A stretch of DNA of 45,200 bases, from positions 1 through 45,200 of the forward strand of contig JAKQCM010000058.1 of assembly GCA_029559155.1 (NCBI GenBank), written 5' to 3'. The stretch is from Chloroflexota bacterium. GTDB lineage: Bacteria; Chloroflexota; Anaerolineae; Promineifilales; Promineifilaceae. Made by a program: the position numbers and the translations under genes. The notes beneath the pieces are model-generated. The model worked only from the letters and a program-made list of their open reading frames with translations. It did not search any database and was not told where the DNA came from. Positions 1 to 45,200 of this stretch are shown here, piece by piece (positions within the stretch are counted from its first letter, which is position 1; each line of letters begins with the position of its first letter).

Positions 1-746
1 ACCACATGCCGCTGCGATAGGTTCAACTCGGCGGCGTCTTCAATGGTGACAATGCGGTCGCCATCGGGAATAAAGCTGGAAAGCACGTTGAGCAGCGTGG
101 TTTTACCGGAGCCGGTGCCGCCCGAGACGACAATGTTCAACTTGGAAACGACGCAGGCGCGCAGAAATTCGGCCATGTCGTCACTGAGGCTGCCAAAATT
201 GATGAGGTCCTGAATGCCAAAAGGCGTTTTGGAAAATTTGCGGATGGTGATGTTGGGGCCGTCGATGGCGCAGGGCGCAACGACAGCATTGACGCGGGAT
301 CCATCGGGTAAACGGGCATCTACCAGCGGGTTTTCGCGGTTGGCCACGCGGCCAAGGGGTTTGATAATTTTGTTGATGACGCGTTCGATGTGCCCATCGT
401 TGACAAAGAAGGCGTCGGTTTCCACCATTTTGCCTTTGCGCTCGATGTAGACCAGATCTGCCCGATTCACCATCACTTCGGTGACGGTTTCGTCTTTGAG
501 CAGCGGCTCCAAAGGCCCAAAGCCGACGATTTCGTCGACAAGGCAGTTAAAAAAGTCTTCTTCCTGGTCCGGGGGAATGTTGAGGCGGGTGTGTTTACGG
601 GCCATTTCAAAGCGGTCACGGATGAGTTGGATGGTTTGGGGGTCGCGGTTTACGGCCGTTTTCTCGGCCAGCGAGGCTTCTATTTTTTCGGCCAACCACA
701 ATTTTGCTTTGGCCAGTTCACGGTTGCTTTCCAAATTAGCCGACAT
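1..746 (-). CDS. cpaF: CpaF/TadA-type secretion ATPase, C-terminus outside window
   Basis: Hexameric ATPase of the Tad/Flp type IV pilus (type II/IV secretion ATPase superfamily), which powers pilin export at the inner membrane. The frame from ATG at 746 gives 248 codons and then leaves the window. The N-terminal domain is followed by the Walker A motif GGTGSGKTT near residue 210 and the Asp-box-like IPDGDRIVTIED segment. The start is supported by GAGGA about 9 bases upstream. A TATAAT box lies at 800-805 on the minus strand with no good -35. Walker B and the His box would lie beyond base 1. No other pilus genes are visible. Family assignment is firm; the exact paralogue (CpaF rather than another Tad ATPase) is inferred. 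Confidence 0.92.
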   Translation of the reverse strand, partial: MSANLESNRELAKAKLWLAEKIEASLAEKTAVNRDPQTIQLIRDRFEMARKHTRLNIPPDQEEDFFNCLVDEIVGFGPLEPLLKDETVTEVMVNRADLVYIERKGKMVETDAFFVNDGHIERVINKIIKPLGRVANRENPLVDARLPDGSRVNAVVAPCAIDGPNITIRKFSKTPFGIQDLINFGSLSDDMAEFLRACVVSKLNIVVSGGTGSGKTTLLNVLSSFIPDGDRIVTIEDAAELNLSQRHV

Positions 747-841
747 GGTTTTTTCCTCGGTTGCGTTACTGCTGGGTTATGACCAAGTAATACCACTCAA
801 TTATAGGCGTGTTAGAGCGGTTTTCGTATAGGTTATGTTGC

Positions 842-2443
842 CTATTGTGCGTCTGTGACGGCCGAAGGGCTGCCCCAGCCGCCGCCGCCGGGTGTTTCCA
901 GACGCAAGATGTCGCCGGCGGCCAGTTGCAGGGCGGCTTTGCCCGGCAGGATGGTTTCCTGATGGTTGTGGATGAGGCTGTTGCGGCCGGGTTGCCCCGG
1001 TTCGCCGCCGAGTAGGCCGTAACACGGCCGTTCCCGCCGTTCGCTGATCACGCTGATGGTTACTGGCGTAAGAAATTCGATGGCGCGAATCAGGCCATCT
1101 CCGCCGCGATGACGGCCGTTTCCCCCCGATCCCTGCCGCAGCGCATACGCGCCCACACGCAGCGGGAAGGCGTATTCCAGCGCCTCGATGGGTGTGTTGC
1201 GCGTATTGCTCATGTGGACATGCACCCCCGACGCGCCATTTCCTTGCGGGCCGGCGCCCGCGCCGCCGCCAATGGTTTCATAATAGGCAAAGGGCTTGCC
1301 GCTGCTCGTTTTCCCGCCGAAGGTGAGGTTGTTCATGGTTCCCTGGCTGGCGGCCGGGATGAGATCGGGCAGCGCCTGGGCCAGCGCGCCAAAGACCACG
1401 TCCACGAGCCGCTGCGAGGTTTCCACGTTGCCGGCGGCTACGGCGTGCGGTGGGCGTGGGTCTAGCAAGCTGCCGGGCGGGATGCGCAGCGTCAGCGGCG
1501 CGAAGGCTCCTTCGTTCATGGGCAAGTCGGTTTGCAGCAAGGCCAGGGCTACGCAGCGCAGGCAGTAGGCCACGGCCGACTGCACGATGGCCGGCACGGC
1601 ATTGAGATTGCCCGCCACGGCCGTTCCCGTGCCGCTAAAGTCTACAGTCATCTCGTCGGCGTGGATGGTGATGGCCGCGCAAATGGGCACGGCCGTTTGC
1701 CCATCGTTGTCCAGGTAATCGGTGAAGGTGAAACGGCCGTTGGGTATCTGGGCCACGGCGGCGTGGGTCATGCGGGCGGCATAGGCAATGAGGGCGTCGG
1801 CGTGGGTCACGGTTTCGGGCAATCCATACCGGGCCACAATTTCTTGCAGCCGCTGTGCGCCGATGGTATGAGCGGCCGTTTGCGCCGCCAGATCGCCATT
1901 TCGCTCATCGGGCGTACGCACGTTGCGTAAAATCAACTGCCAGACCGCTTCGTTTCGCTGCCCGCGGTCTATCAGTTTGATGGGCGGGATGATGATGCCT
2001 TCCTGGAAAAGCTCGCTGGATAGAGGCATGGAGCCAGGCGACATGCCGCCCACGTCGGCGTGATGGGCGCGGCTGGCGACGAAAAAGTCGGGCGACTGGG
2101 GATTGGCGCTTGGCGATTGGACGAAGACGGGCGAGACAAGGGTGATGTCCGGCAGGTGATTGCCGCCCTGGTAAGGATCGTTGAGGATGACGACGTCGCC
2201 GGGATGGAAGGGCGCGCAGCGGTTGATGGCGGCGCGCACAGAAGCAGGCATGGCTCCCAGATGAACGGGAATGTGGGCAGCCTGGGCCAGGAGACGGCCG
2301 TCGCCTAAAAATAGGGCGCAGCTAAAATCCAGGCGCTCTTTAATGTTTGGGCTGTATGCCGCCCGGCCAAGCGTCACCCCCATTTCCTCGGCCACAGAGG
2401 AAAATAGATGACGAAAGATCGAAAGTGAAGCGGCGTCAGTCAT
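842..2443 (-). CDS. hyuB: Hydantoinase B / 5-oxoprolinase beta-type subunit
   Basis: 533-aa protein of the HyuB (hydantoinase B/oxoprolinase) family, the partner subunit of ATP-dependent N-methylhydantoinase, 5-oxoprolinase or acetophenone-carboxylase-like enzymes that open cyclic amides. Length is typical. Recognisable family segments are LGAMPASV near residue 80, the NDPYQGGNHLPDI motif near residue 110, and the C-terminal GGGGWGSP. Its ATG overlaps the stop of the upstream phosphoribosyltransferase gene by 8 bp (ATGACTGA), so translation is probably coupled. The usual HyuA ATPase partner is not adjacent: upstream is the phosphoribosyltransferase and downstream, 95 bp on, is the CpaF-type ATPase. 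The substrate cannot be read from sequence. Confidence 0.9.
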   Translation of the reverse strand: MTDAASLSIFRHLFSSVAEEMGVTLGRAAYSPNIKERLDFSCALFLGDGRLLAQAAHIPVHLGAMPASVRAAINRCAPFHPGDVVILNDPYQGGNHLPDITLVSPVFVQSPSANPQSPDFFVASRAHHADVGGMSPGSMPLSSELFQEGIIIPPIKLIDRGQRNEAVWQLILRNVRTPDERNGDLAAQTAAHTIGAQRLQEIVARYGLPETVTHADALIAYAARMTHAAVAQIPNGRFTFTDYLDNDGQTAVPICAAITIHADEMTVDFSGTGTAVAGNLNAVPAIVQSAVAYCLRCVALALLQTDLPMNEGAFAPLTLRIPPGSLLDPRPPHAVAAGNVETSQRLVDVVFGALAQALPDLIPAASQGTMNNLTFGGKTSSGKPFAYYETIGGGAGAGPQGNGASGVHVHMSNTRNTPIEALEYAFPLRVGAYALRQGSGGNGRHRGGDGLIRAIEFLTPVTISVISERRERPCYGLLGGEPGQPGRNSLIHNHQETILPGKAALQLAAGDILRLETPGGGGWGSPSAVTDAQ

Positions 2444-2984
2444 TAAAAACGGGCAAATTGCCTAAGGCCACAATATGCGACCAGTCAGAATCCCCTTCGG
2501 TGAAGACGGCCGCGACCCGGCTGACTTTGGCCTGAGCCTGGTCACAAATAATTTCCATGCCTTCCAACGTGCTGCCGGTGCTAACGACATCATCGATGAG
2601 AATGACACGTTTGCCGGTGATGAGCGCCTGATCTTTTTCATCCAGATAAAGCCGCTGGGGTTTGCCGGTGGTGATGGAAATGGTTTCTGCTTCGAGAGCG
2701 CTGCCCATGTAGGATTTGTATGATTTGCGCAGGACGATGTAGGGCATGCCCATCAGAGCGCTCATTTCGTAAATCAGCGGGATGCTTTTGGCTTCGGCGG
2801 TGACCAAAACCTGAGCGTCTGTGTTTTTGAGGCGTTCGGCTAAAGCCGCGGCGGCGGCTTTGACGACGTTGGTATCGCCTAGCATATTGAAAATGGCGAT
2901 GCGCACGCCCGGCGCGACCTCGAACAGCGGCAAATGACGGACGATGCCAGCGATCTGGACCATGTAGGTTTCACGTTGCGACAT
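2436..2984 (-). CDS. Phosphoribosyltransferase, APRT-like
   Basis: 182-aa type I phosphoribosyltransferase. The PRPP-binding loop VILIDDVVSTGSTL sits at about residues 122-135, and the fold resembles adenine phosphoribosyltransferase (purine salvage: base plus PRPP gives nucleotide plus PPi). The ATG at 2984 is chosen because GGAG lies 8 bases upstream; an in-frame ATG at 3041 would add a basic stretch unlike the family. The 3' end overlaps hyuB by 8 bp. Specificity (adenine, hypoxanthine/guanine or a regulatory role) is not resolved by sequence alone. Confidence 0.85.
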   Translation of the reverse strand: MSQRETYMVQIAGIVRHLPLFEVAPGVRIAIFNMLGDTNVVKAAAAALAERLKNTDAQVLVTAEAKSIPLIYEMSALMGMPYIVLRKSYKSYMGSALEAETISITTGKPQRLYLDEKDQALITGKRVILIDDVVSTGSTLEGMEIICDQAQAKVSRVAAVFTEGDSDWSHIVALGNLPVFND

Positions 2985-3018
2985 GGGTGAATGTCTCCTT
3001 TTTGGTTTGTTGGGTAGA

Positions 3019-3034
3019 ATACTTTTGAAAGTAT
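3019..3034. promoter_or_regulatory. Hyphenated palindrome in divergent intergenic region
   Basis: Perfect 7-bp arms ATACTTT and AAAGTAT separated by TG, lying 35 bp upstream of the phosphoribosyltransferase start and about 95 bp upstream of the divergent oxidoreductase start. Its symmetry suits a dimeric repressor operator. No regulator is encoded next to it, so the role is inferred. Confidence 0.3.
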
Positions 3035-3128
3035 CCTGCATATTTTTTGAGATGATGACCCAATTAGTGTACCCAATGGTCGGCGGAATGGCACGTGAGT
3101 TCCATGTTTGTCGGCAGGAGCGAGCAAT

Positions 3129-4112
3129 ATGAAAGCAATTATCGTGGAAGGAAGTGAGGAAAAGCCTGTGTTGGTCTGGCGCGACACCGATGACGTGGTT
3201 TATGGGACGGATGAAGTGTTGGTTGCGGTGCGGGCCACGGCCGTTAACCGCGCCGATCTCTCGCAGGCCAGAGGCAATTACCCGCCGCCGCCCGGAGCCA
3301 GTGAGATTTTAGGGCTGGAAATGGCCGGCGTGATCGAAGCCCTGGGCGCAGAGGTCACCGGCTGGCAGGTGGGCGACCGGGTATGCGCGCTGCTGCCGGG
3401 CGGCGGTTATGCCGAGAAGGTAGCCGTTCCCGCCGGAATGCTGATGCGACTGCCGGATGCGTGGACATTTGTCCAGGGCACGGCCGTTCCCGAAGTGTGG
3501 TTTACCGCTTACATCAACCTCTTCCTGGAAGGGGATCTAAAGAAGGGGGAAACGGCGCTTATTCACGCCGGGGCGAGCGGGGTTGGCACGGCCGCCATTC
3601 AGTTGGCGCGGGTGGCCGGGGCGCGGGTGTTGGTGACGGCCGGATCGCCGGAAAAGCTGGCCCGCTGCCGGGAGTTGGGCGCGGAGCTGGCCATCAACTA
3701 CAAGGAGGAGGATTTTGTAACGGCCGTACACGAAGCCACCGGCGGCGAGGGCGTGGATGTGATTTTGGACCCGGTGGGCGGGGCTTATCTGGACCGTAAC
3801 GTGCGCAGCCTGCGCCGCTTTGGGCGGCTGGTGAATATTGGCACGCTGGGCGGGGTGCAGGGGGAGATGAACACAGGTTTGCTGCTGGGTAAGCGGTTGA
3901 AGATTGTGGGATCGACGTTAAGGACACGGCCGTTGGCCGAAAAAATCGCCATAACCCGCCAGTTTACCGACCGCTTCTGGCCGCTGCTGCGCTCCGGCGA
4001 TTTGCAGCCCATCATCGATGTAACGTACCCCATCACCCAGGCGCAGCAGGCCCACGAATACGTGGCTGAGGACAAGAATGTGGGCAAGGTGATTTTAGTG
4101 GTGGGCGATTAA
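3129..4112 (+). CDS. Zinc-independent quinone oxidoreductase (zeta-crystallin/PIG3 type)
   Basis: 327-aa medium-chain dehydrogenase/reductase of the quinone oxidoreductase branch, an NADPH-dependent soluble enzyme that reduces quinones or enones. The N-terminal GroES-like domain includes VNRADLSQ and GLEMAGVIEALG. The Rossmann segment HAGASGVGTAAIQLA is at about residues 145-160. No catalytic zinc ligands are seen, as expected for this branch. Closest in style to PIG3/TP53I3. The ATG at 3129 has GGAG 9 bases upstream. It is divergent from the phosphoribosyltransferase-hyuB pair and appears to be transcribed alone. Confidence 0.9.
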   Translation: MKAIIVEGSEEKPVLVWRDTDDVVYGTDEVLVAVRATAVNRADLSQARGNYPPPPGASEILGLEMAGVIEALGAEVTGWQVGDRVCALLPGGGYAEKVAVPAGMLMRLPDAWTFVQGTAVPEVWFTAYINLFLEGDLKKGETALIHAGASGVGTAAIQLARVAGARVLVTAGSPEKLARCRELGAELAINYKEEDFVTAVHEATGGEGVDVILDPVGGAYLDRNVRSLRRFGRLVNIGTLGGVQGEMNTGLLLGKRLKIVGSTLRTRPLAEKIAITRQFTDRFWPLLRSGDLQPIIDVTYPITQAQQAHEYVAEDKNVGKVILVVGD

Positions 4113-4907: not shown

Positions 4908-5315
4908 TTAATGCCCGTTATTTTTGTCAGTCTCCAGCAAATCCCACAGATTGCCATATAAATCGGCAAAGACGGCGACCGTGCCGTAGGGCGCTTCTTT
5001 TGGCTCGCGTACAAAGCGGATGCCGGCCGCGACCATCTCGTGGTAATCGCGCCAGAAGTCGTCGGTTTGCAGAAAGAGGAAGACGCGCCCGCCGGTCTGG
5101 TGGCCGATCACGGCCGTCTGCTCCGCCGTCGTCGCCCGGGCCAGCAGCAAGGTCGTGCCGCTGGAACCAGGCGGGGCCACCACCACCCAACGCTTGTCTT
5201 GCTCCGGCTGGTAAGTATCTTCGACCAGGGTAAAGTGCAGCTTGCCGGTATAAAACGCAATCGCTTCGTCGTAGTCGCGGACAACCAGGGCGACGTGGAT
5301 AATTGATTGGTTCAT
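4908..5315 (-). CDS. VOC/glyoxalase-fold protein
   Basis: 135-aa single-module vicinal-oxygen-chelate protein (glyoxalase/bleomycin resistance/dioxygenase superfamily). The opening IIHVALVVRDYDEAIAFYTG is the standard first beta-alpha module, and FADLYGNLWDLLE is the second metal-side strand with its terminal glutamate. Possible metal ligands are His7 and the terminal Glu. Members act as lyases, isomerases or drug-binding proteins, and the substrate is unknown. ATG 5315 lies 22 bp after the stop of the permease gene, so the two are probably cotranscribed. Upstream SD is weak. Confidence 0.85.
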   Translation of the reverse strand: MNQSIIHVALVVRDYDEAIAFYTGKLHFTLVEDTYQPEQDKRWVVVAPPGSSGTTLLLARATTAEQTAVIGHQTGGRVFLFLQTDDFWRDYHEMVAAGIRFVREPKEAPYGTVAVFADLYGNLWDLLETDKNNGH

Positions 5316-5337
5316 GGGTGACCGTGTGCGGAGGACC

Positions 5338-6555
5338 TTATTTTTCCGCTTCGCTTTTGTCCGGTTCGGGTGGCGGTTGTTCGACCGGGACCAAGGGCGG
5401 TGGTATCTCTTCAGTAAAGGGCGGCAGGTCGAACATTTTGCGCCAGACGTAATTGCCGATGAGTTTGATGGAGGCCAGCAGCGGCGCAGCCAGCACAGCG
5501 CCCAAAATTCCGGCCAGTGACGCGCCCATCAAAACGCCCAGCAGCACCATCAATGGGTGCAAATTCAAGGCGTTGCCCACAATGCGCGGCACAAGTAAGT
5601 TGTTCTCCAACTGTTGGATGACGATCATGACGCCCAGGGTGATGAGGGCTAACTGCACGCTGGTGAGACCCCAGTAGTTTTCCGGCTGAAACAAGGCGAC
5701 GATGATGGCGACAACGGCCGTGACAATCGGCCCTACGTTGGGGATAAACTCCAGCAGCCCGGCCATCACCCCCAAAGCCAGCGAATACTGCACCCCTAAA
5801 ATTGCCAGACTGATGCCCGTCACAAAACCGATGATCAGCCCCAAAATGACCTGACCGCGTAAATACGAACTCCAAATCAGGCTGCTGTACGCCATCAGCC
5901 GTTCAGCGTCGTGCTGATAGCCGGGCCTTTGGGTGAGGCGCGCCACATAACCGCCTAAATTGGGGATTTCGGCCGTCAGGTAAATGGAAATAATGAAAAT
6001 AAAAAACAACTGGCCTACCACGTTGATGGTTGTCGTGGCAAAAGAGGTCAGAAGGCTGCCGCTGCGGCTGACGGTTGGCTCCACATACCCCATCAACTGG
6101 TTGACCACAGCGTCCCATTCGACTGAGGCTGGGGCAAACGCAAAGGAGCCCAGGCGAATCGGCTCGGTGCGCTGGCTTAATTCGCGCAGCAAATCGACGA
6201 AATCGGCCACCAGTGAGGGAACCTGATTGATAAAGCCGCCAACCTGATCATAAACCGAAACGCCCACCAGGATACTGCCGCCAACGATGAGGACCACCAG
6301 TGTCAGGTAAACCATGGCAATGGCCGTGGCGCGGTTTAAGCGGGTGCGATCGTTGATGAAGACGACAATCGGGTTGATGAGATATGCCAGAATCGCCGCA
6401 ATTGTCATCAGGCGAATGATGGAGGTGAAGCGAAAAATAAGCGCAATGACCAGGATCAGGGTGCTGACGGCGACGATGATTTTGGTATTGGCGCTCCATT
6501 TGGGAGACTGGTAATCGGGTTCGTTTGGGCTGGTCATTGGTGCATCCGCGGTCAT
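5338..6555 (-). CDS. AI-2E/PerM-family permease
   Basis: 405-aa polytopic membrane protein of the AI-2 exporter family (TqsA/PerM/YdiK). About seven to eight hydrophobic segments are seen. The paired N-terminal helices contain LAYLINPIVVFI, and the C-terminal block IPNVGPIVTAVVAII and LVPRIVGNALNLHPLMVLL is diagnostic. Some members export autoinducer-2, and others act as Na+/H+ antiporters or are unassigned. The tail is rich in Pro and Glu. The start has AGGAGG 5 bases upstream. A hexamer tandem array lies just upstream of that SD. Confidence 0.93.
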   Translation of the reverse strand: MTADAPMTSPNEPDYQSPKWSANTKIIVAVSTLILVIALIFRFTSIIRLMTIAAILAYLINPIVVFINDRTRLNRATAIAMVYLTLVVLIVGGSILVGVSVYDQVGGFINQVPSLVADFVDLLRELSQRTEPIRLGSFAFAPASVEWDAVVNQLMGYVEPTVSRSGSLLTSFATTTINVVGQLFFIFIISIYLTAEIPNLGGYVARLTQRPGYQHDAERLMAYSSLIWSSYLRGQVILGLIIGFVTGISLAILGVQYSLALGVMAGLLEFIPNVGPIVTAVVAIIVALFQPENYWGLTSVQLALITLGVMIVIQQLENNLLVPRIVGNALNLHPLMVLLGVLMGASLAGILGAVLAAPLLASIKLIGNYVWRKMFDLPPFTEEIPPPLVPVEQPPPEPDKSEAEK

Positions 6556-6570
6556 AAGGTCCTCCTATCA

Positions 6571-6604
6571 GCTAAAGCTAGCTAGAGCTAGAGCTAGAGC
6601 TAGA
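6571..6604. repeat. GCTAGA hexamer array
   Basis: Starts GCTAAA-GCTA, then four consecutive GCTAGA units at 6581-6604, 16 bp upstream of the permease gene's start codon region on the minus strand. It belongs with the larger CTCTCG-type array at 6636-6737, since CTAGAG and CTCTAG are reverse complements. Confidence 0.85.
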
Positions 6605-6635
6605 GTGGTCTTTGTGCCATCGTCTCTCATTCTTC

Positions 6636-6737
6636 CTCTACCTCTCGCTTTCGCTCTACCTCTCGCTCTCGCTCTACCTCTCGCTTTCGCTCTTCCTCTC
6701 GCTCTCGCTCTCGCTCTTCCTCTTCCTCTCGCTCTAG
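6636..6737. repeat. Pyrimidine-rich hexamer array with 18-bp higher-order unit
   Basis: Seventeen hexamers stay in register from 6636 to 6737. Four 18-bp units (6636-6653, 6654-6671, 6672-6689, 6690-6707) have the form CTCT(A/T)C-CTCTCG-CT(T/C)TCG, followed by CTCTCG, CTCTTC, CTCTTC, CTCTCG and CTCTAG. The last hexamer contains the stop codon of the upstream fusion gene (TAG, minus strand 6736-6734). The array fills the intercistronic gap ahead of the permease gene. Replication slippage is the likely origin. Confidence 0.9.
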
Positions 6738-9700
6738 CTGCCTAATTCTACCTCGTAGATATAGAAAAGTGGATCGGCGTGGTGGCCGGGGAGGGAATAG
6801 GCACGGCCGTTCGGATACATCGCTTCCACGGCATCCATTTCGCCCGCTCGTTCCGGCAGAAAGATAAAACTCACATGTTGGCTGGATGGCGTAGGGCTAT
6901 CGGCGGACTCGGCTACATCGAACAGGTTTTGGTTCGCCTGGAATTCGGTCGCCAGGAACGGAATGGTGGGGAAATTGATGTACATGACCGGCGGGCCGTA
7001 AAAATAAGCCGACGCGTTTGCGCCGTCCAGGCTGTTCAGATAATCGGCCACACCCTGAGCAATTTCGGTGTTACGGTCGCCAAAGCTGTAAGATTGGCGG
7101 TAACGGCCGTAATAAAAAAACATCTCATTCAGCGATACCAGGGTCGCCAAAACCAGCAGGGCGGGCAGCAGCCAATCGGCACGGCCGTTGCCGGGACGTA
7201 CCGCCAGCGCCCAACGCCCGATCTCCACCAGCGCCAAAGCCGCCAATAAGCTCAACAGCGGCGCAGCCAGCACCAACCGGTGGCTGCTTGGGGTTTCAAT
7301 CAGCAGCGCCCCGCCAAAAAACAAGGTGATCGCCAGAGCCGATACCAGCAGCGCATGGCGCGCCTGCCGCAGCCGCAAAAGCGCGATCATCACGCCGACC
7401 ACCAGCAAAATGGCCGGAATGGTGCTCAACAGCGAGACTCCCGGGCGATAAGCCGGGCTGACATCGGCGGCGGCGTTGAAGGCCAGTAAGGCGCGTTGGA
7501 TTTGCTCGCCAAAGATCGCCATCTGGCTGCGCCCTGTGCGCAGGGCTTCTTGCGCCAGCCAGCCCGTCTGCCCGGCCAAAATTCCGTTCGATTGAAAACG
7601 ATCCATAAACACGCCGGGATTGGCGCGATAAAAAAGCATTTGGGGCAGGGCGACCAGAAAAGCCAGCAGCGAGGCCGCTAACAAATTCCCGGCCTGCCGG
7701 AAAACAGTGGGGCGGTCTGCCAGCAGGGCAAAAAGAAGCAAAGCCAGCAGCATGAGCGGCAGCAAGTGCGACGTAGTGAAGAGGTAGGCGTTCAGGCCAA
7801 CGGCGAATCCGGCCCATAACCAGGTGTGGCGGGCGGCACGGCCGTTCTTCCCATCTGTCCAGGCCGCGCCCAGCAGCCCTAAAGCCAGCAGCAAGAACAG
7901 CCCATCCCACACGTTGGTAAGGCCCAGGCGGCTGTAGTGCAGGTGAAAGTGGGAACCGGTCAGCAAGACGGCCGCAATCAGGCCCACTTCCAAACGCCAC
8001 AAGCGCATTCCCACCCAGAACACCGCCACAACCGTCAGCGCGCCAATCAGCGGCGAGAAAAAGCGAATGGATAATACAGAAGGGCCGAGCAGTTTGACGG
8101 GCACAGCCATCAGAAAATAGGGCAGCGTGGGGTTGGTTAGCCAGCCGGTGGAAAAAGGATTGTGGGCCAGCCCGTCGGCGACGGCGCGCACGTCCAGGCC
8201 AACTCCGGCTTCCAGCCCATTGAGGATGAAGGGGTGATTGCTGAGGGCGGCGGCGCGGATGATGAAGGCGGTGAAAAAGAGGGTAAGACTGCCCAGCCAC
8301 ACAAACCGGCGGTTAGCGGGCGGGCCACGGCCGTCAGTCGTTTCGGGCGTGGTTGTGGATGGTTGGTAAAGGGCGTAAAAGCCAATGAGGATGCCAATGA
8401 GCCACAAACTTAGCGTGAGCAGGGGCGGCCAGGGAGCGATGCCGTTGGCTGCCTGTCGGTAGGCGATGAGCACCAGGAATAATCCGGCAAAAAAACCCCA
8501 GCGCCGCCGGGGGATGGCTAGATGGCGCAGGGTGGGCCACGGCCGTTTGTTTGCCTGCGTTTGCCCCATCACACCCAAGCGCCATAAAAACAGCAGCAGG
8601 GCGATGAAACTGTAGACGAACCAGCGCAGGCCGCCGGGCGGATTGTTTTCCGCGCCGCCAACGATACTCTGGCCGATGAAGGCCAGCGCCAATGTTAGCA
8701 GCAGCAGCCCGGCAGCCAGGACGTCAAAAGGGCGACGGCCGTTTTCCTCCTCCTGCTCCTCTAATTCCGGGAGCACCAGTACCTGGCTTGTTACGGTGGC
8801 CGGCGTTTCGTCGGCTGGCCGGGTGGGTATGTTGTGGCTGGGTTCGGTGGGTTGGCGGCGCTGCACGGCCGTTTCCAATTCGGCAATCGTAAACGGGCGG
8901 GCAGGCGGCAGGTGCATCTCGATGGGGCCGTCGGCCACTTTGCGGGCGACGATCAGGATGTATGCGCCCTGTGCCTGGGCTTCTTCGTCGTAAAACGGCC
9001 GTAACCAACGCTCAGTCATGGCCAGACTGTTTTCCCAGGGGGCCAAAATCCAGTGACCGGTGAGAAAGTGCATAGCTGCCGCCGGCAGCCCTTGCGCGTG
9101 GCCGAGTTCCAGCGCGTGCAGCGCCTGGGGTGAAAAATAATATTGCCAGCGCTCAATGGCCATCCCGGCTTCCGCCAGACGCGCCGCCCAAACTTCCGGG
9201 CTGTCTGTGTGGACGTGGCGAGAGATGTAGTTGAACCCGCTGCGGTACCTATCGGCCAGACCGGTCAGGTTGAGCTTCTCGAAGAACTGCGCGCCGCCCA
9301 GCCATTTGGTGAAGTATTGGCTGGGCATGGTGATGAGGAAACGGCCGTCTGGTTTTAACACCCGGCTCGTATCATTCAGCACCGCCTGCACATCGGGGAT
9401 ATGTTCCAGCACGGAATTGGAGAAGGCGCTGGCGAAGGTGTGGTCGGGGAAGGGCAGGCGGTCGCCCATGCCCTGCATCACCTGGTCGTATTGGTCGGAG
9501 CGGTACGCTTTGTTAAGCGGTCCCCACCAGGGATCGATGCCCACTTCAATGCGGCGGTCGAAAGTCATCTGGGCGAAGTGGCCGTCGCCGCAGCCGACAT
9601 CCAGTGTGGGGCCGGGTAGATCGACGGCATAATAAAAGCGCGATTCCACCGCCCGCAGAATGGCGCGAAAGGCGGGAATGGTTTTAAGCTGCCGCCAGAG

Positions 9701-9757
9701 AAGATCGTCTGCGGCGAAAGGGGAGGGAGGTTTGTTGGTTTGTTGGTTGGTGGTCAC
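6734..9757 (-). CDS. SAM methyltransferase fused to GT39-like membrane glycosyltransferase
   Basis: About 1007 aa, two modules. Residues 50-270 form a class I SAM methyltransferase (motif I LDVGCGDGHFAQ near 52, then SNSVLEHIPDVQAVL and RVLKPDGRFLITMP). After a Pro/Glu-rich linker, residues 345-1007 hold a dozen or so hydrophobic helices. The first lumenal loop carries the acidic motif NGLEAGVGLDVR of PMT/ArnT-like GT39 enzymes, which use polyprenyl-phosphate sugars. The GTG at 9757 is preferred because the in-frame ATG at 9850 lies inside an intergenic palindromic repeat and adds a low-complexity N-terminus; neither has a good SD. The neighbours (GT4 and flippase-like gene) point to envelope glycolipid or glycan assembly. 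Confidence 0.85.
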   Translation of the reverse strand: MTTNQQTNKPPSPFAADDLLWRQLKTIPAFRAILRAVESRFYYAVDLPGPTLDVGCGDGHFAQMTFDRRIEVGIDPWWGPLNKAYRSDQYDQVMQGMGDRLPFPDHTFASAFSNSVLEHIPDVQAVLNDTSRVLKPDGRFLITMPSQYFTKWLGGAQFFEKLNLTGLADRYRSGFNYISRHVHTDSPEVWAARLAEAGMAIERWQYYFSPQALHALELGHAQGLPAAAMHFLTGHWILAPWENSLAMTERWLRPFYDEEAQAQGAYILIVARKVADGPIEMHLPPARPFTIAELETAVQRRQPTEPSHNIPTRPADETPATVTSQVLVLPELEEQEEENGRRPFDVLAAGLLLLTLALAFIGQSIVGGAENNPPGGLRWFVYSFIALLLFLWRLGVMGQTQANKRPWPTLRHLAIPRRRWGFFAGLFLVLIAYRQAANGIAPWPPLLTLSLWLIGILIGFYALYQPSTTTPETTDGRGPPANRRFVWLGSLTLFFTAFIIRAAALSNHPFILNGLEAGVGLDVRAVADGLAHNPFSTGWLTNPTLPYFLMAVPVKLLGPSVLSIRFFSPLIGALTVVAVFWVGMRLWRLEVGLIAAVLLTGSHFHLHYSRLGLTNVWDGLFLLLALGLLGAAWTDGKNGRAARHTWLWAGFAVGLNAYLFTTSHLLPLMLLALLLFALLADRPTVFRQAGNLLAASLLAFLVALPQMLFYRANPGVFMDRFQSNGILAGQTGWLAQEALRTGRSQMAIFGEQIQRALLAFNAAADVSPAYRPGVSLLSTIPAILLVVGVMIALLRLRQARHALLVSALAITLFFGGALLIETPSSHRLVLAAPLLSLLAALALVEIGRWALAVRPGNGRADWLLPALLVLATLVSLNEMFFYYGRYRQSYSFGDRNTEIAQGVADYLNSLDGANASAYFYGPPVMYINFPTIPFLATEFQANQNLFDVAESADSPTPSSQHVSFIFLPERAGEMDAVEAMYPNGRAYSLPGHHADPLFYIYEVELGS

Positions 9758-9783
9758 GTTTGGGTCCGTTTGGGGAGGTGTAC

Positions 9784-9854
9784 ACGGATGACACGGATTG
9801 GACGGATTGTCACAGATTCTTTTTGATGAATCCGTGAAAATCCGTGTCATCCGT
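9784..9854. repeat. Palindromic ATCCGTG-type intergenic repeat
   Basis: Perfect 16-bp arms ACGGATGACACGGATT (9784-9799) and AATCCGTGTCATCCGT (9839-9854), with further degenerate copies between them (GACGGATT, AATCCGTGAAAATCC). It fills the gap between the GT4 gene and the fusion gene. Such ATCCGTG-rich palindromes are familiar as interspersed extragenic elements in diverse bacterial genomes. No coding role is seen. Confidence 0.75.
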
Positions 9855-9872
9855 TAAATCCGTGTGCCCCTC

Positions 9873-11096: not shown

Positions 11097-11156
11097 AAGG
11101 GTTCCAGTTCGGATTTGGTTTTTGGCGTTTCGGCCTGCTGTTTATACACGGCCGTT

Positions 11157-12260
11157 TCACGAAAGACTTTCCGGTTTATTTTCTGTGCGATTGGCAAATT
11201 GGCGCGTGGCGTCGATGACGTGGCGGAAGGTTGCGCCGGTTGCCAGCAGACCCACGATACCCAAAAGGGTCGTGGTGGTGAGATTGATGGCATGGTATAG
11301 GAAGGCAAAACTGGCCGCCTGTCCTTCCGGTTGGCCTAGAATGGTGGTCAGGGCAAAGATGACGCCGGCGTGAAAGACGCCAATCTGGCCGGGGGATGAA
11401 GGCGCGGCGACGCTCAGGGCGGCGGCGCAAACGACGAATCCGGCCATAGCTGGCGTGGGAGTCAGGTTCACGGCCAGCAGGCCAAAGTAGTAAGCGGCAA
11501 TGATGGGCATCCAGGTGAGGATGGTGGTGAGCAGCAGGATAAAGCCGCTTTTGAGGCTGGTCAGGCTGCTGAGTCCGACAAGTAAATCGTCGACGCGGTT
11601 GACCCAGGCGGCGACGTTGAGGCGGCCAACGGCCGTAAATACGCGGCTGAGCCAGGCAATACGGGCCGTGCGGGCGGCCAGCCATTGGTTGAGGCGGGCG
11701 ATCCATGAGAAGACGGCCGTGGCCCATTTGCGGGCTAACGGCCGTTGGTTGGCGGCGATCACCAGCACGACCACGACGGCCGTGGTTAGAATGCCAATGA
11801 CCAGGGCGGTGGATTGTACCTGTTCGGGCAATGTGTCCACAGAGGCCAGTGTAAACGGCAGCAAGATGACCATGAACAGCATGTCTAAAATGCGTGTGAC
11901 CACAACGGTCGATAACCCGCGCGCGATCGTCACCGGCGGCACGCTGCCAATTAAAACGGCCTGGGCCACGTCGCCCAGACGCAGCGGCAGGAAATTGTTA
12001 ACCAGATAGCCGATGTTTTGGATATGGAAGGTGTTAGCCAGACTGATGTCGTTGTTGAGCATGAAACGCCAGCGCACGGCGCGGATGAGCAGGAAGAGGA
12101 TGATGCCGACGGCCGTTAACCCCAAATATCCCCAACGCGCAGTCTCCAGAGCCGCTAGAATTTCTGCCGGCTCAATAAAAAAGAAGATGGCAACCAGACA
12201 GATAAGGCTTACCATCATACCCACCCAAAATTGACTTTTTTGCTTCTGATTCGTATCCAT
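11157..12260 (-). CDS. Lysylphosphatidylglycerol-synthase-TM / UPF0104 flippase-like membrane protein
   Basis: 367-aa integral membrane protein with about eight hydrophobic segments of the UPF0104 family (the transmembrane part of MprF-type lysyl-PG synthases). Diagnostic segments are NNFLPLRLGDVAQAVLIG, TVVVTRILDMLFMV and the C-terminal APSSPGQIGVFHAGVIFAL. Stand-alone members are linked to lipid or glycolipid translocation, which fits the downstream glycosyltransferases. ATG 12260 is preferred over ATG 12293. No SD precedes it, but TATAAT at 12270-12275 is placed to start the transcript only about 3 bases before the ATG. Confidence 0.88.
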   Translation of the reverse strand: MDTNQKQKSQFWVGMMVSLICLVAIFFFIEPAEILAALETARWGYLGLTAVGIILFLLIRAVRWRFMLNNDISLANTFHIQNIGYLVNNFLPLRLGDVAQAVLIGSVPPVTIARGLSTVVVTRILDMLFMVILLPFTLASVDTLPEQVQSTALVIGILTTAVVVVLVIAANQRPLARKWATAVFSWIARLNQWLAARTARIAWLSRVFTAVGRLNVAAWVNRVDDLLVGLSSLTSLKSGFILLLTTILTWMPIIAAYYFGLLAVNLTPTPAMAGFVVCAAALSVAAPSSPGQIGVFHAGVIFALTTILGQPEGQAASFAFLYHAINLTTTTLLGIVGLLATGATFRHVIDATRQFANRTENKPESLS

Positions 12261-19227: not shown

Positions 19228-19574
19228 TTTAACGAAAAACGACCGTGGTCCTCGTTTACCACGGCCGTTACTGATAACGTAGTCTGTATAGCCTCACGGC
19301 TACACAATCGTGTCTGTTATCGACGAATATGAGCTTGTTAGCCGAATTCCCGCCTGGGTCATGTCATCGATTCATGCCAAACGGCTGCTGATTTACATTT
19401 CACCATACTAAAAAAGTTGCTAGCTTGCTCAATTGTCTGATGCTGTCTCAAACCTGGAGAGAAATTACCCGACTCTCAGGAAATTGATTGTATTTTTAAC
19501 AGAATAACCCACGTTCAGTTTTGGCCTGTGGCCCTGTCAACCTGATTCGTCGACAGAATTTCAATATCAGTTAT
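19228..19574. other. recA-recX intergenic gap, no gene seen
   Basis: 347 bp without a credible reading frame. It holds a 7-bp-stem hairpin CCGTGGT...ACCACGG at 19243-19264, just upstream of recX on the minus strand, and a small TAGCC/GGCTA hairpin near 19289-19302. A copy of ACGGCCGT is at about 19260. No clear promoter or terminator was found. The length could accommodate partial termination of recA transcripts before recX. Confidence 0.5.
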
Positions 19575-24045: not shown

Positions 24046-24137
24046 GGGAAATTTTACATAAAAGGGCGACGGCCGTTCTTGCTCCCCCACCCCTGGTCGA
24101 GTATGCTTAACCGCAAAAGACCACCTTAGAGGATGAA

Positions 24138-27426: not shown

Positions 27427-27428
27427 AC

Positions 27429-28136: not shown

Positions 28137-28381
28137 GGATCATGGACGGGTGGCAACCGCAAAGAGCGCGGAGAACGCAAAGGGGAAACATGGAAAACTT
28201 TGCGCACGCTGCCTCGTTTGTGGTAAAAGTTGTTTAAAGAACTCCTCGCCGTCATAAATTTTTACCTTTGCGCCAGACCCCACATGCCCAATTTGCCGGA
28301 TTTCTACCAAGTCATGGTGAACGGCCGTCACTTGCCGCCGTACAATCGCCAGTGTTACAATCGTTTTTTGGAGGATTTCTC
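28137..28381. promoter_or_regulatory. Intergenic region with promoter for the GatB/YqeY operon
   Basis: A promoter fits at 28332-28361: TTGCCG, 18-base spacer, TACAAT, 20 bases before the ATG. Upstream lie CGCAAAG copies (near 28158 and 28176) and inverted CTTTGCG (28198-28204), a weak hairpin. No gene was found in the 245 bp. Confidence 0.55.
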
Positions 28382-28828
28382 ATGACGCTTAGCGAAAAAT
28401 TACGCACCGACATGGCCAACGCCATGAAACAATCAGATAATGAAACCAGAGATGTGCTGCGTATGTTGTTGGCCGCCATTAAACAGGTGGAAGTAGACGA
28501 CCAAGTCACCCTGGACGACAGTGGCGTGGCCGCTGTGCTGGCCAAACAAGCCAAGCAGCGCCGCGAAAGCATCGCCGATTATGAAAAAGCGGGTCGCCAT
28601 GAATTGGTAGCCCAGGAACAGGCCGAATTGGCGATCATCGAATCCTATTTGCCCCAGTTGATGGATCGTGAAGCGGTGAAAGCCGTGGCCGCACAGGTTA
28701 TCGCCGATTTGGGCGTTAGCGATATGAAGGGCATGGGGCAGGTGATGGGAAAATTGATGCCCCAACTAAAAGGCCAGGCAGACGGCTGTATCGTCAATGA
28801 GGTTGTGCGCGAGCTGCTCGCCAACTGA
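28382..28828 (+). CDS. GatB/YqeY-domain protein
   Basis: 148-aa protein of the GatB/YqeY family, stand-alone relatives of the tail of the Glu-tRNA(Gln) amidotransferase B subunit, possibly tRNA-binding. Typical segments are LRTDMANAMKQSDNETRDVLRMLLAAIKQ and LPQLMDREAVKAV, ending GQADGCIVNEVVRELL. GGAGG lies 7 bases before ATG 28382. It heads the operon with the 7TM-HD, ybeY and dgkA genes. Confidence 0.93.
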   Translation: MTLSEKLRTDMANAMKQSDNETRDVLRMLLAAIKQVEVDDQVTLDDSGVAAVLAKQAKQRRESIADYEKAGRHELVAQEQAELAIIESYLPQLMDREAVKAVAAQVIADLGVSDMKGMGQVMGKLMPQLKGQADGCIVNEVVRELLAN

Positions 28829-28855
28829 TTGGCAAGGACATTATCACCCGAAACA

Positions 28856-31027: not shown

Positions 31028-31038
31028 GGATGTGGGGC

Positions 31039-31521: not shown

Positions 31522-31522
31522 A

Positions 31523-31918: not shown

Positions 31919-31955
31919 AACTTGCCGGCCAATCACTTCCGCGTCAGATTGCCAT

Positions 31956-34620: not shown

Positions 34621-34697
34621 GGGTTAGTGGGGGGTGTCTGGTTTATGATGGGAGAGGAACGGCCGTTTTCCATTGCGCCATTCTCCCTATTCCCACT

Positions 34698-35240
34698 TTA
34701 TTTGGGCCGGACTTCTGGGGGGATGTCGCGCAGGAAAGCATTTTCCGCGTCCCGTTTGGACAAGATAGGCTGAGAGATACCCCAATCGATGGCAATGTCG
34801 GGATCGTTCCAGGCGACGCCGTTTTCGTCACGGCCGTTATCATAATAATTGTCCACAATGTACGTCAGGGTAACGTCGCTCAACGCCAAAAAGCCGTGGG
34901 CCACGCCGATGGGTATAAACAAACCCAGCTCATTGAAATCGCCGATTTCGATGGTTTGGGTGTGGAGATAGGTGGGGGAAGACGGCCGTAAATCCACCAT
35001 GCCCGCGCGAATCATCCCCTTCGCCACACACCAATAATCAACCTGGTGGTGGTGGAAATGCAAGCCGCGCAGCACCCCGGCCTGTGAATCCGACCGGTTC
35101 ATCTGCAAGATATCCCAATTGCGCTGCGGAAACCAATCTTTGCGAAACGTTTCCATAAAACGACCACGTTCATCGCCAAAGGGGCGTAGTTTAACCGTAA
35201 AAACTCCTTTAATTATGTTTGATTCTTCGATGCGATCCAT
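34698..35240 (-). CDS. rfbC: dTDP-4-dehydrorhamnose 3,5-epimerase
   Basis: 180-aa cupin-fold epimerase of the dTDP-rhamnose pathway. FGDERGRFMETFRKDWF and GVLRGLHFHHHQVDYWCVAKG carry the conserved Arg and His ligands of the active site, and GVAHGFLALSDVTLTYIVDNYYD follows. GGAT lies 6 bases before ATG 35240. Other rfb genes (A, B, D) are not in the window. It fits the glycolipid/glycan operon. Confidence 0.92.
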   Translation of the reverse strand: MDRIEESNIIKGVFTVKLRPFGDERGRFMETFRKDWFPQRNWDILQMNRSDSQAGVLRGLHFHHHQVDYWCVAKGMIRAGMVDLRPSSPTYLHTQTIEIGDFNELGLFIPIGVAHGFLALSDVTLTYIVDNYYDNGRDENGVAWNDPDIAIDWGISQPILSKRDAENAFLRDIPPEVRPK

Positions 35241-37197: not shown

Positions 37198-37268
37198 CGT
37201 TTTCCTCTGTGGGTTAAAATGATTGTAGCCTGTTCTGCTGATCTGCGTATAGGAAACGGCCGTTAAAG

Positions 37269-41317: not shown

Positions 41318-42109
41318 ATGAAATTACTCGAAGGCAAAAAAGCGCTCATTTTTGGCATTGCCAACCAACGGTCCATCGCCTGGGGCATCGCCCAAACCCT
41401 GCACGAGCATGGCGCGGAAATTGGCTTCAGCTACGGCATCCCGCAGCTGGAAAAACGGGTCCGTCCCCTGGCTGATGAGCTTGGCGTTACATTTGTAGAA
41501 ATGTGCGATGTGTCGTCTGATGCGGACATTACGGCCGTTTTCGCCAAAGCCGCCGACCATTTCGGCCAGATCGATATCCTCGTCCACGCCATTGGTTATG
41601 CCCTGAAAGAAGACCTGGAAGGCCGATTTGTGAGTACGTCACGAGAAGGCTTTCGCATAGCAATGGACATCAGCGCTTACAGCCTCGTCGCCTTGGCGCG
41701 AGAAGCCGTGCCCCTCATGCCGGCCGGCAGCGCTATCCTTACCCTGACCTATTACGGCGCGGAAAAAGTTGTCCCGCATTACAATGTGATGGGCGTAGCC
41801 AAAGCGGCCCTGGAAGCCAGCACACGTTACCTGGCCGCCGATTTAGGCCCGCAAGGCATTCGCGTCAATGCCATTTCCGCCGGTCCGATCAAAACGTTGG
41901 CTGCCGCGGGCATTGCCGGCTTCCGCAAAATGCTCGGCTATGTGGGCGAACGCGCCCCGCTGCGCCGCAATATTGACCAGGAGGAAGTCGGGAAAACGGC
42001 CCTCTGGTTGTGCAGCGATCTGGCCAGCGGCGTGACCGGCGAAGTGGTGTATGTGGACGCCGGGTATCATATTTTGGGCATGTCGGAACCACCGGAAAAA
42101 TGGGAATAA
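41318..42109 (+). CDS. fabI: Enoyl-ACP reductase I
   Basis: 263-aa NADH-dependent enoyl-ACP reductase completing fatty acid elongation. [16 protein letters not shown] nucleotide loop, catalytic Tyr145, Tyr155 and Lys162 in [19 protein letters not shown], and [30 protein letters not shown] precedes the ATG. Triclosan-type inhibitors bind this class. FabL, a different family with the same role, lies 4.1 kb upstream. Confidence 0.95.
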
Positions 42110-42192
42110 CGGCCGTGTCGTTAGCTTAATCCTCGTTGTAAGCCCAAAATACTAATCTAAGATGAGTGGTGGTTGAATCCATCCAAATGGGT

Positions 42193-43831: not shown

Positions 43832-43891
43832 TCCTCCCGCAGGTGGGAGTCGACAGTGGGTTTCCACCAAGACTGCCCGCCTGCGGGAGGA
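43832..43891 (+). promoter_or_regulatory. Long leader hairpin before ffh
   Basis: Arms TCCTCCCGCAGGTGGG (43832-43847) and CCCGCCTGCGGGAGGA (43876-43891) pair over 16 positions with one G-U pair. The loop can add an AGTC/GACT inner stem and a GTGG/CCAC tip. The structure ends 9 bases before the SD-like AGGTGATC of ffh. No known riboswitch or SRP RNA was recognised. Confidence 0.6.
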
Positions 43892-43909
43892 TGATTGTCA
43901 GGTGATCTT

Positions 43910-45200
43910 GTGTTTGAGTCTTTAGGCTCTCGGCTACAATCTGTTTTCGACAATTTACAGCGCCGTGGCAAGTTGACGGAAGAAGACGTCGATCTGGCCA
44001 TGCGTGAAGTGCGTCTGGCTTTGTTGGAAGCAGATGTCAACTTCAAAGTGGTCAAGAACTTTGTGACGCGTGTGCGGGAGCGTTCTGTTGGGCAAGAGGT
44101 TATGCGCAGCCTGACGCCGGGTCAGCAAGTCGTGAAAATTGTTCATGACGAGCTGGTGGCGACGTTGGGCGAGCCTGGTCGGTTAAACCTGGGCATGCAG
44201 TCGCCGGCGGTCGTTATGCTGGTGGGGCTGCAAGGCGCTGGTAAAACAACGATGGCGGGTAAGTTGGCGCTCCACTTGCGTAAACAGGGGCGACGGCCGT
44301 TGCTGGTAGCCTGTGACGTCTATCGTCCGGCGGCTGTGGAGCAGTTGCAAACACTAGGGAAACAGCTGGACATTCCGGTTTATACGGAAGGCACAGCCGC
44401 GAATCCGGTAAACATCGCGCGGAATGGCGTGAAACAAGGCGCTTCTTCAGGCGCGACAGTGGTGATTCTGGACACGGCCGGGCGTTTGACCATCAATGAA
44501 ATGATGATGGATGAGATTAAGGCGATTAAAACGGCCGTCTCCCCCATCGAAACCTTGCTTGTCGCCGACGCCATGACCGGACAAGAAGCGGTGCGCGTTG
44601 CTACAGACTTTAACAATGCGGTCAACCTGACCGGCCTGATCATGACCAAGATTGATGGGGATGCTCGCGGCGGCGCGTCTATTTCCATGCGCGAAGTGAC
44701 CAATGTGCCCATCAAATTCCTGGGAACCGGCGAGAAACTAAGCGCGATTGAGGTGTTCCATCCGGACCGCCTGGCAAACCGCATTTTGGGCATGGGGGAC
44801 GTGATGACCCTCATCGAAAAAGCCCAGTCGGAAATGGATCAGGAAGAGGCCCAGAAAGCGGGCGCTCGCATGATGGAAGGCAAATTCGACCTGGAAGATT
44901 TTCTGAGCCAGATGCAGCAAATTAAGCGTCTTGGCCCCATTGGGCAGTTAATGGAAATGATTCCGGGTATGAATAAGATGGCCAAAGACGTGGATATGTC
45001 TGGCGCCGAAAAAGATTTGGCCCGCATTGAAGCGATTATTCGTTCGATGACTGTGGGCGAGCGCCGCAATCCTAAGATTATCAAAGCCAGCCGTAAGCGG
45101 CGTATTGCCCTTGGGTCTGGTACAACTGTTCAGGATGTGAATATGCTCCTGAAACAATTCCGAGAAATGCAGACAATGATGAAACAATTGCGTTCTGGCC
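43910..45200 (+). CDS. ffh: Signal recognition particle protein Ffh, C-terminus outside window
   Basis: GTPase that targets ribosomes with nascent membrane proteins. GTG 43910 starts VFESLGSRLQSVFDNL and is preceded by AGGTGATC, a match to the anti-SD. The NG domain has GLQGAGKTTMAGK (G1), DVYRPAAVEQL, DTAGRL and TKIDGDARGGA. The Met-rich M domain begins near residue 310, and RRIALGSGTTVQDVNMLLKQF is its RNA-binding helix region. About 430 codons are present; only a short tail is lost. Confidence 0.96.
   Translation, partial: MFESLGSRLQSVFDNLQRRGKLTEEDVDLAMREVRLALLEADVNFKVVKNFVTRVRERSVGQEVMRSLTPGQQVVKIVHDELVATLGEPGRLNLGMQSPAVVMLVGLQGAGKTTMAGKLALHLRKQGRRPLLVACDVYRPAAVEQLQTLGKQLDIPVYTEGTAANPVNIARNGVKQGASSGATVVILDTAGRLTINEMMMDEIKAIKTAVSPIETLLVADAMTGQEAVRVATDFNNAVNLTGLIMTKIDGDARGGASISMREVTNVPIKFLGTGEKLSAIEVFHPDRLANRILGMGDVMTLIEKAQSEMDQEEAQKAGARMMEGKFDLEDFLSQMQQIKRLGPIGQLMEMIPGMNKMAKDVDMSGAEKDLARIEAIIRSMTVGERRNPKIIKASRKRRIALGSGTTVQDVNMLLKQFREMQTMMKQLRSG

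What the first reader, a model, noticed from the sequence alone, without database searches (positions are those of the whole stretch)
1..45200. Massively over-represented octamer ACGGCCGT, HIP1-like
By eye about 80 exact copies occur, on average every 560 bp (dense at 600-3930, 5100-12120 and 21000-35000). A random sequence of this composition would have about one. It is palindromic, often extended to ACGGCCGTT, and appears in genes of every class and in gaps (e.g. about 11147, 19260, 28321, 37258, 42110). In genes it is read in all three frames and yields recurring tripeptides: T-A-V, (N/D)-G-R and R-P-(F/Y/L). The near misses GCGGCCGT and TCGGCCGT also recur. This parallels cyanobacterial HIP1 (GCGATCGC) in being palindromic and genome-wide, and suggests a host-specific selective or mutational force such as a methylase target, repair bias or nucleoid signal.
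Basis: partly seen in the sequence, partly recalled or inferred. Interest (0 to 1): 0.75.

Follow-up and report, generated by a model that had tools for sequence, protein, structure and literature searches.

The report
A palindrome that saturates whole genomes
An eight-letter DNA palindrome occurs 11,524 times in this bacterium's genome, fills nearly every sampled spot where one silent letter change could complete it, and is replaced in some relatives by another, similarly saturated palindrome, likely because a DNA repair process that prefers the word keeps rewriting the genome towards it.

Summary
Confirmed. ACGGCCGT occurs 81 times in the window (1-3 expected) and 11,524 times in the 5.81 Mb genome. 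It is a highly iterated palindrome of the cyanobacterial HIP1 kind, in an Anaerolineae (Chloroflexota) family. Wherever seven letters are in place and the eighth is a free synonymous position, the word's letter is used 190 of 190 times in the window and 2,011 of 2,035 times in 445 kb of this genus (background 17-59%). The bias is local: near-misses are not closer to existing copies, spacing is roughly random, coding and non-coding DNA agree. It reshapes proteins: Thr-Ala-Val is 7.5 times more frequent than expected. Sites hold: 78 of 80 aligned copies are identical in a congener, against 61% of same-composition octamers. Relatives speak dialects: TCGGCCGA, GCGGCCGC, bare CGGCCG or TGCCGGCA saturate instead. 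Some predicted viral contigs, picked for density, carry the word saturated too; HIP1 in one Leptolyngbya stretch behaves alike. No single methyltransferase found is shared by all carriers; the best candidate (P0007) is in 25 of 27 high-count genomes, but also in relatives and other phyla without a saturated word. I favour a word-directed repair or conversion bias (driver not found); per-copy selection is the main rival.

The parts
652..44538 (.). Set of 81 copies of the 8-bp palindrome ACGGCCGT
   Evidence: starts: 652,1024,1112,1617,1689,1733,2294,3237,3480,3720,3926,5110,5714,6803,7103,7181,7838,8327,8539,8735,8865,8995,9341,9985,10099,10497,11148,11629,11713,11738,11776,12109,14082,15895,17699,17840,18923,19261,21048,21337,22931,23250,23378,24069,24453,25585,25860,26375,26881,27025,27362,27595,27853,28087,28321,29246,29528,30573,31117,31468,31715,32658,33355,33761,34659,34830,34982,37027,37256,37554,38206,40088,40485,40780,40800,40963,41531,42109,42606,44293,44531
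11148..11155 (.). copy outside the predicted ORFs
19261..19268 (.). copy outside the predicted ORFs
24069..24076 (.). copy outside the predicted ORFs; the congener G001 has GCGGCCGT here (one of two aligned sites not kept)
11776..11783 (.). copy in a divergent stretch; not kept in G001
11629..11636 (.). the one copy that did not align to G001 and was left out of the 78 of 80
28782..28789 (.). near miss ACGGCTGT where G001 has the full word
34659..34666 (.). copy outside the predicted ORFs
37256..37263 (.). copy outside the predicted ORFs
42109..42116 (.). copy that shares only its first base with the ORF 41318-42109
44293..44300 (.). copy outside the predicted ORFs

Best explanation
ACGGCCGT is the saturated genome-wide word of this Anaerolineae lineage, and it is likely kept saturated by a word-directed DNA repair or conversion process that restores the word when a copy mutates and keeps it when a near-match mutates into it. 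Shown here: copies are conserved, synonymous near-misses are almost gone, the bias takes no account of neighbouring copies or of coding status, it changes proteins, relatives use other words with similar saturation, and some predicted viral contigs carry the word saturated too. P0007, a solitary ~670-aa two-part amino-methyltransferase-like protein, is the best candidate for the octamer form, but it is neither always found nor sufficient.
For: Synonymous saturation: 0 misses of 190 free positions in the window, 24 of 2,035 in G000+G001. Against a synonymous shuffle the word has 816 copies for 75 expected, ACGGCGGT/ACCGCCGT 7 for 157, ACGGCTGT/ACAGCCGT 4 for 57. Odds multiplier over background codon use: 191 (132-293) for this genus, 238 for TCGGCCGA in G007, 77 in G045, 134 for GCGGCCGC in G014, 72 for TGCCGGCA in G011, 54 for CGGCCG in G017, 96 for six viral-collection stretches. 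In strict non-coding DNA the word exceeds the mean one-off type 99-fold here, 280-fold in G007, 156-fold in G014 and 19-fold in G017. Locality: 24 near-misses lie a median 149 bp from the nearest copy, against 166 bp between copies, p 0.53; spacing near-exponential (CV 1.18). Conservation 78 of 80 against 637 of 1,043, p 1e-13; third codon positions differ at 2 of 189 inside and 1,839 of 12,967 outside. A fold of about 100 is in the range by which mismatch repair lowers error rates (recalled).
Against: No repair protein or word reader was identified, and no mutS, mutL or nuclease search was made. Per-copy selection with a scaled strength of about 5 would give the same site frequencies. The multiplier is not one constant: G005 9, G065 33, g3 genomes 2-3 for the hexamer. 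Near-misses in less saturated G005 are not transition-rich (40 of 131, 34.4 expected), so I could not show decay after loss of a driver. High multipliers may be floors set by wrong gene calls, so their likeness across lineages is weak evidence for a fixed biochemical ratio. The viral stretches were picked for density from a capped list.
Confidence: 0.45

Rival explanations
1. Per-copy selection: each copy gives a small additive benefit, for example as a binding site for an abundant chromosome or self-recognition protein, so that selection with 2Nes near 5 fills every available place.
For: Gives the same saturation and conservation. Some predicted viral contigs also carry the word, as a self-marker or packaging role would need. 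Dialects fit a protein that changes specificity.
Against: Needs benefits that do not diminish with neighbouring copies and that outweigh protein sequence (TAV 446 for 59 expected). No spacing rule.
Confidence: 0.3
2. Methylation-directed repair (the model of Elhai 2015): an orphan methyltransferase of the word's specificity, P0007 or P0001 here or a different one in each lineage, marks the word, and mismatch repair spares the marked strand.
For: P0007 orthologue, fragments counted, in 25 of 27 genomes with at least 900 copies per Mb and in G014 (GCGGCCGC), G007 and G045 (TCGGCCGA). In genus g17, G045 has P0007 and an octamer word; G017 lacks it and has the bare hexamer. P0001 orthologue in 12 of those 27 (this genome and 11 others at 69-92%) and at 65% in G064; a match in G023 is only 57%. 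PF01555 matches all 14 high-count genomes of one set of 40, and none is found in G005, G009 and G021, which are less or not saturated.
Against: P0007 is not found in G012 (95% complete, 159 of 161 saturated) or G002 (78% complete), even with a profile; it is in all 8 g3 genomes and 2 of 3 g20 genomes, which lack a saturated word where sampled, and in other phyla; its variable region does not follow the dialect. P0001 is absent from saturated G043, G053, G055. G002's only PF01555 match is weak (5e-4). PF00145 absent from G000 and G001.
Confidence: 0.2
3. DNA uptake word: the palindrome is preferred by the competence machinery and accumulates by biased transformation.
For: Dialects with a shared core recall uptake-sequence dialects (recalled). 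Acts like a conversion bias.
Against: One word per fragment should suffice, so near-misses beside a copy should be tolerated; they are not. The word is a short perfect palindrome.
Confidence: 0.04
4. By-product of composition, codon use or tripeptides.
Against: A synonymous shuffle gives 75 copies for 816 seen; non-coding density is 1.65 per kb against 2.09 in genes; tripeptide excess follows the word in each dialect.
Confidence: 0.01

Closest known systems
Cyanobacterial HIP1 (GCGATCGC) and alternate HIPs (Elhai 2015, PMC4390886: abstract, sections 7 and 12, first part of section 18, and passages read)
   Same: GC-rich palindromic word, around 500-2500 per Mb in the paper and 1,983 per Mb here; one-off forms biased to the outer letters; lineage replacement by other palindromes; HIP1 in a 22-kb Leptolyngbya stretch is saturated too (54 of 55; 3 misses of 69, multiplier 43).
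   Different: Another word and phylum; in most of this family the core CGGCCG stays while the outer pair changes; no single methyltransferase common to all carriers found. Saturation, locality and proteome change are measured here; I did not see them in the parts of the paper that I read.
DNA uptake sequences (Neisseriaceae DUS, Pasteurellaceae USS; recalled; PMC1939737 seen in search listings only)
   Same: Thousands of copies, dialects, conserved copies.
   Different: Those are non-palindromic and, as I recall, tolerate many near-misses; here near-misses are removed and neighbouring copies do not matter.
DNA phosphorothioation (Dnd) at a GGCC core (recalled)
   Same: A GGCC core within the word.
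   Different: DndC over its cut-off in 5 of 52 family genomes (10 with any match) and not in G000 or G001.

Membership tests
HIP (highly iterated palindromes) | a palindromic word far above expectation over the whole genome | tested here: met
   11,524 copies, word read backwards 218; 915 against 10-13 (Markov orders 1-3) in 445 kb
HIP (highly iterated palindromes) | one-off forms deviate mostly at the first or last letter | tested here: met
   outer forms 1.1-3.6 times expected, inner forms 0.15-0.92
HIP (highly iterated palindromes) | sites conserved between related genomes (Xu et al. 2018, recalled; paper not held) | tested here: met
   78 of 80 against 637 of 1,043 controls
HIP (highly iterated palindromes) | a methyltransferase able to modify the word is present (Elhai 2015) | tested here: inconclusive
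   candidates P0007 and P0001 present here, specificity unknown; neither is found in all carriers
HIP1 in the strict sense | sequence GCGATCGC in Cyanobacteria | tested here: not met
   word is ACGGCCGT, relatives are Chloroflexota
DNA uptake sequence | preferential uptake of DNA bearing the word | not testable with these tools
   needs a cultured competent strain
DNA uptake sequence | near-misses tolerated; one copy per fragment enough (recalled) | tested here: not met
   near-misses 4-7% of shuffle at two synonymous types; no effect of distance
Type II restriction site | recognition site avoided in the host genome | tested here: not met
   the word is over-represented at least 70-fold

The most novel reading that the evidence does not exclude
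Bacterial genomes can be rewritten towards a palindromic word by a word-directed repair ratchet that needs no dedicated methyltransferase, acts on every replicon in the cell, changes the proteome, and moves to a new word when its reader changes; cyanobacterial HIP1 is one instance of this general process.
Probability: 0.3. Interest if true: 0.92.

Novelty: new variant of a known kind. Interest (0 to 1): 0.8.

Why it matters
As far as I know the cause of HIP1 is still open. This family gives a second system, in another phylum, with natural replicates: one core, several outer pairs, saturated and unsaturated sisters. Synonymous saturation, absence of a distance effect and presence on predicted viral contigs separate local conversion-like processes from spacing-dependent functions, and turn the question into a gene-presence comparison plus one heteroduplex experiment. 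It also shows a DNA-level bias strong enough to change proteins: in the sampled DNA 437 of 446 Thr-Ala-Val tripeptides are written as the word (32 of 32 in the window).

Tried and rejected
Methyltransferase hunt: PF00145 is in 14 of 40 relatives and not in G000 or G001. PF01555 is in 37 of 40, among them all 14 high-count genomes of that set, but through different proteins, and also in unsaturated ones; the three without a match are G005, G009 and G021. PF02086 (Dam-like P0004) is in 27 of 40, including genomes without the word and missing from G004 and G006. P0001 looked good until G043, G053 and G055 proved saturated without it. P0007 looked better until it turned up in Desulfobacterales, Planctomycetota, Dehalococcoidia and others. 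In stretches of up to 22 kb, most of those show no CGGCCG excess; L385 (9 copies, 5.1-fold), L415 (4 copies, 4.9-fold) and L407 (3 copies, 3.1-fold) do by composition, and L385, the only one of the three long enough, does not have CGGCCG among its two leading hexamers. P0007 also stayed missing from G012. DndC was rejected. Ordinary restriction-site avoidance was rejected (over-representation). A CCGGCCGG dialect in g9 and L391 looked likely, but its multiplier is only 4-7; dropped. A decay signature in G005 was not found. In one search the G053+G055 row counted an overlap twice (L387 with L513); corrected (0 misses of 161).

Literature: PMC4390886 read in part. Searches showed in their listings (titles and abstract starts) no report of this word or of HIPs in Chloroflexota; open-licence library only. 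Xu et al. 2018 is recalled, not held.
Full report
1. Observation. The window holds 81 exact ACGGCCGT and the genome 11,524 in 5.81 Mb, one per 504 bp, against 218 of the word read backwards. Markov models (orders 1-3) built after masking the word expect 10-13 copies in 445 kb (this window of G000 plus 400 kb of congener G001); 915 are there.

2. Who carries it. In the family (52 genomes), 27 have at least 900 copies per Mb; the next is at 514 per Mb (threshold mine). In 400 genomes drawn from the phylum, the 397 outside the family reach at most 471 copies. Named contigs whose lengths match unnamed ones (CALEAD010000007.1 = G018:C7, JAGNBF010000074.1 = G014:C49, JAHDWL010000031.1 = G060:C43) are labelled Anaerolineae or Chloroflexi; Ardenticatenales and Promineifilum MAGs are among the hits. 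Kinship of this family to those two is my inference.

3. Saturation. When seven letters are present and the eighth is a free third codon position, the word's letter is used 190 of 190 times in the window, 1,821 of 1,845 in the G001 sample. By position in the pool: 127/131, 252/253, 437/440, 127/127, 252/253, 437/442, 127/129, 252/260, where background codon use predicts 17-59%. A synonymous shuffle that keeps every protein gives 75 copies for 816 observed; the near-misses ACGGCGGT/ACCGCCGT fall to 7 of 157 expected and ACGGCTGT/ACAGCCGT to 4 of 57, while the three outer-letter forms do not fall (1.1-2.6). The outer pair matters: inner-letter use is 1,632 of 1,644 with A..T outside and 0.29-0.76 with the 15 other pairs. 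Genes were called as long ORFs, so some misses may be wrong frames, and the multipliers are best read as lower limits.

4. Locality. Distances between copies are near-exponential (CV 1.18; counts per 1-10 kb have 1.2-1.8 times Poisson variance); gaps under 20 bp are scarce (9 for 22) and gaps over 3 kb in excess (7 for 2). The 24 remaining synonymous near-misses are no closer to a copy than copies are to each other (median 149 and 166 bp, p 0.53). Density is 2.09 per kb in genes and 1.65 outside. In strict non-coding DNA the word outnumbers the mean one-off type 99-fold (62 copies, 15 one-offs of all 24 types), 280-fold in G007, 156-fold in G014 and 19-fold in G017; G023 has no ACGGCCGT there. 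A function that needs one copy per so many bases predicts relaxed near-misses beside existing copies; that is not seen.

5. Conservation. Over 44.1 kb aligned to G001 at 93.6% identity, 78 of 80 aligned copies are identical (a further copy, 11629, did not align); same-composition octamers keep 637 of 1,043 (p 1e-13), NCGGCCGN without the A..T pair 25 of 44. Third codon positions differ at 2 of 189 inside copies and 1,839 of 12,967 outside. Between genera sites turn over: summed over ten A..T genomes, 25 of 70 aligned copies are kept against 96 of 911 controls; these comparisons reuse the same window sites. In G014, with another word, 0 of 8 are kept.

6. Dialects. G007 uses TCGGCCGA (412 copies in 260 kb, 97-100% saturated by position), G045 the same (85-100%), G014 GCGGCCGC (437 in 280 kb, 97-100%), G017 the bare hexamer CGGCCG (507 in 102 kb, 93-99%), G011 TGCCGGCA (41 in 38 kb, 87-100%; 3,665 in its genome) while avoiding CGGCCG. 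Old words are gone: ACGGCCGT has 5 copies in the G007 sample and 1 in the G014 sample. Less saturated: G005 (hexamer 79-86%) and g3 genomes (hexamer 57-73%). No saturated word in the small samples of G009, G021, G048, G020 and G063 (G020 has TCGGCCGA 6 of 7). Of the 27 high-count genomes, G050 was not sampled and G004 gave only 2 of 2; the other 25 (G000 and G001 pooled) score 0.92 or more, several on few positions.

7. Proteins follow the word. Thr-Ala-Val occurs 446 times for 59 expected in G000+G001, (N/D/H/Y)-G-R 284 for 86, R-P-(F/S/Y/C/W/L) 200 for 113; in G007 Ser-Ala-(D/E) 222 for 49; in G014 Ala-Ala-(A/R) 306 for 102. Reversed tripeptides lie at 0.6-1.2. Other dialects' tripeptides lie mostly at 0.6-1.5, but Ala-Ala-(A/R) reaches 1.5-1.6 in G000+G001 and G023, so the 3.0 of G014 is about a doubling. 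Of the 446 Thr-Ala-Val, 437 are written as the word.

8. Other replicons. A capped viral-collection scan for two copies within 30 bp matched at least 120 stretches, 80 listed; five of those exceed 2.8 copies per kb. I took these five and one more from a denser pattern: six stretches of four contigs, 68 kb, 229 copies, 10 misses of 424, multiplier 96. They were picked for density, so density itself proves little; the missing near-misses are the point. Of 20 proteins scanned, 12 match a PHROG, among them ParA, an anti-repressor, endolysin-like, FtsK-like and DnaC-like proteins; no capsid or portal was seen. They may be phages or plasmid-like, and their hosts are unknown.

9. Positive control. 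A 22-kb Leptolyngbya stretch shows GCGATCGC at 54 of 55, or 3 misses of 69 and multiplier 43 (16-178) with all positions counted. So HIP1 behaves alike in the one place that I looked.

10. G000 and G001 have no PF00145 enzyme. P0001, an amino-methyltransferase (closest solved relatives 8urk and MboIIA) next to HprK-like and thioredoxin-like genes, has orthologues in 12 of 27 high-count genomes and in G064; the G001 match holds one TAG. P0007, ~670 aa with DPMMGGGTT and TDPPYFDSVQYSDL motifs and CxxC pairs, weakly like DUF1156 anti-phage methylases, is in 40 of 52 family genomes, fragments counted: 25 of 27 with high counts, all three with other outer pairs, none of the hexamer genomes G017 and g5. 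No neighbour is shared by more than 4 of 12 loci compared. But G012 and G002 are saturated without a detected copy, all 8 g3 and 2 of 3 g20 genomes have it without a saturated word where sampled, and orthologues at about 46-57% lie in other phyla, most without CGGCCG excess in the stretch seen. It is a lead for the octamer form, not a proven cause. G005, with a partly saturated hexamer, has no match to PF00145, PF01555 or PF02086. Incomplete MAGs limit every absence call.

11. Reading. In saturated genomes the data fit a bias of very roughly 50- to 250-fold towards the word at each site, whatever the surroundings. A bias fixed in the repair machinery gives that directly: errors that destroy the word are corrected from the parental strand, errors that create it are kept. 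Selection can give it too if every copy has the same small benefit (scaled strength near 5) even beside another copy and at the expense of protein sequence. I put the repair reading first, at 0.45, and say plainly that no repair gene was tested. Novelty: the kind (HIP) is known from Cyanobacteria; the phylum, the dialect series on one core, and the measurement of saturation, locality and proteome change are what I saw no report of in the listings of seven searches of an open-licence library.

Noticed in passing
G014 and G017 samples: GCCGGC is almost absent (2 in 280 kb and 2 in 102 kb) where its sibling CGGCCG is saturated; looks like restriction-site avoidance or a word conflict.
   Followed up: no
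G011 (loci L174, L376, L509, L510): The word is TGCCGGCA, and CGGCCG is avoided (4 in 38 kb), the mirror image of its relatives.
   Followed up: partly
P0007 gene in G004, G047, G048, G053: Several assemblies break inside this methyltransferase-like gene at contig ends, as if it lay in strain-variable DNA.
   Followed up: no
L375 (G007:C1:577107-579030): The P0007 orthologue is open only in two overlapping frames, while TCGGCCGA remains saturated; pseudogene or sequencing error, not resolved.
   Followed up: partly
L449, Burkholderiaceae MAG: TGCCGGCA occurs 9 times in 21.8 kb (21 times expectation), synonymous use 18 of 22; a possible independent HIP in another phylum.
   Followed up: no
G023: CGGCCG inner-letter use is 0.78-0.84 with A or T on both sides (0.65 for T..T) but only 40 of 193 inside GCGGCCGC, which looks avoided.
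   Followed up: no
flanks of the word, 445 kb of G000+G001: A weak outward extension AACGGCCGTT: T follows at 116 of 198 non-coding ends.
   Followed up: partly
genus g5 (G064 against G005, G065-G067): Only G064 has P0001, and only G064 shows a clear rise of ACGGCCGT (2,982 against 657-1,189 copies).
   Followed up: no
G005, G009, G021: The only three of 40 relatives without a PF01555 match are a partly saturated and two unsaturated genomes; may be chance.
   Followed up: no
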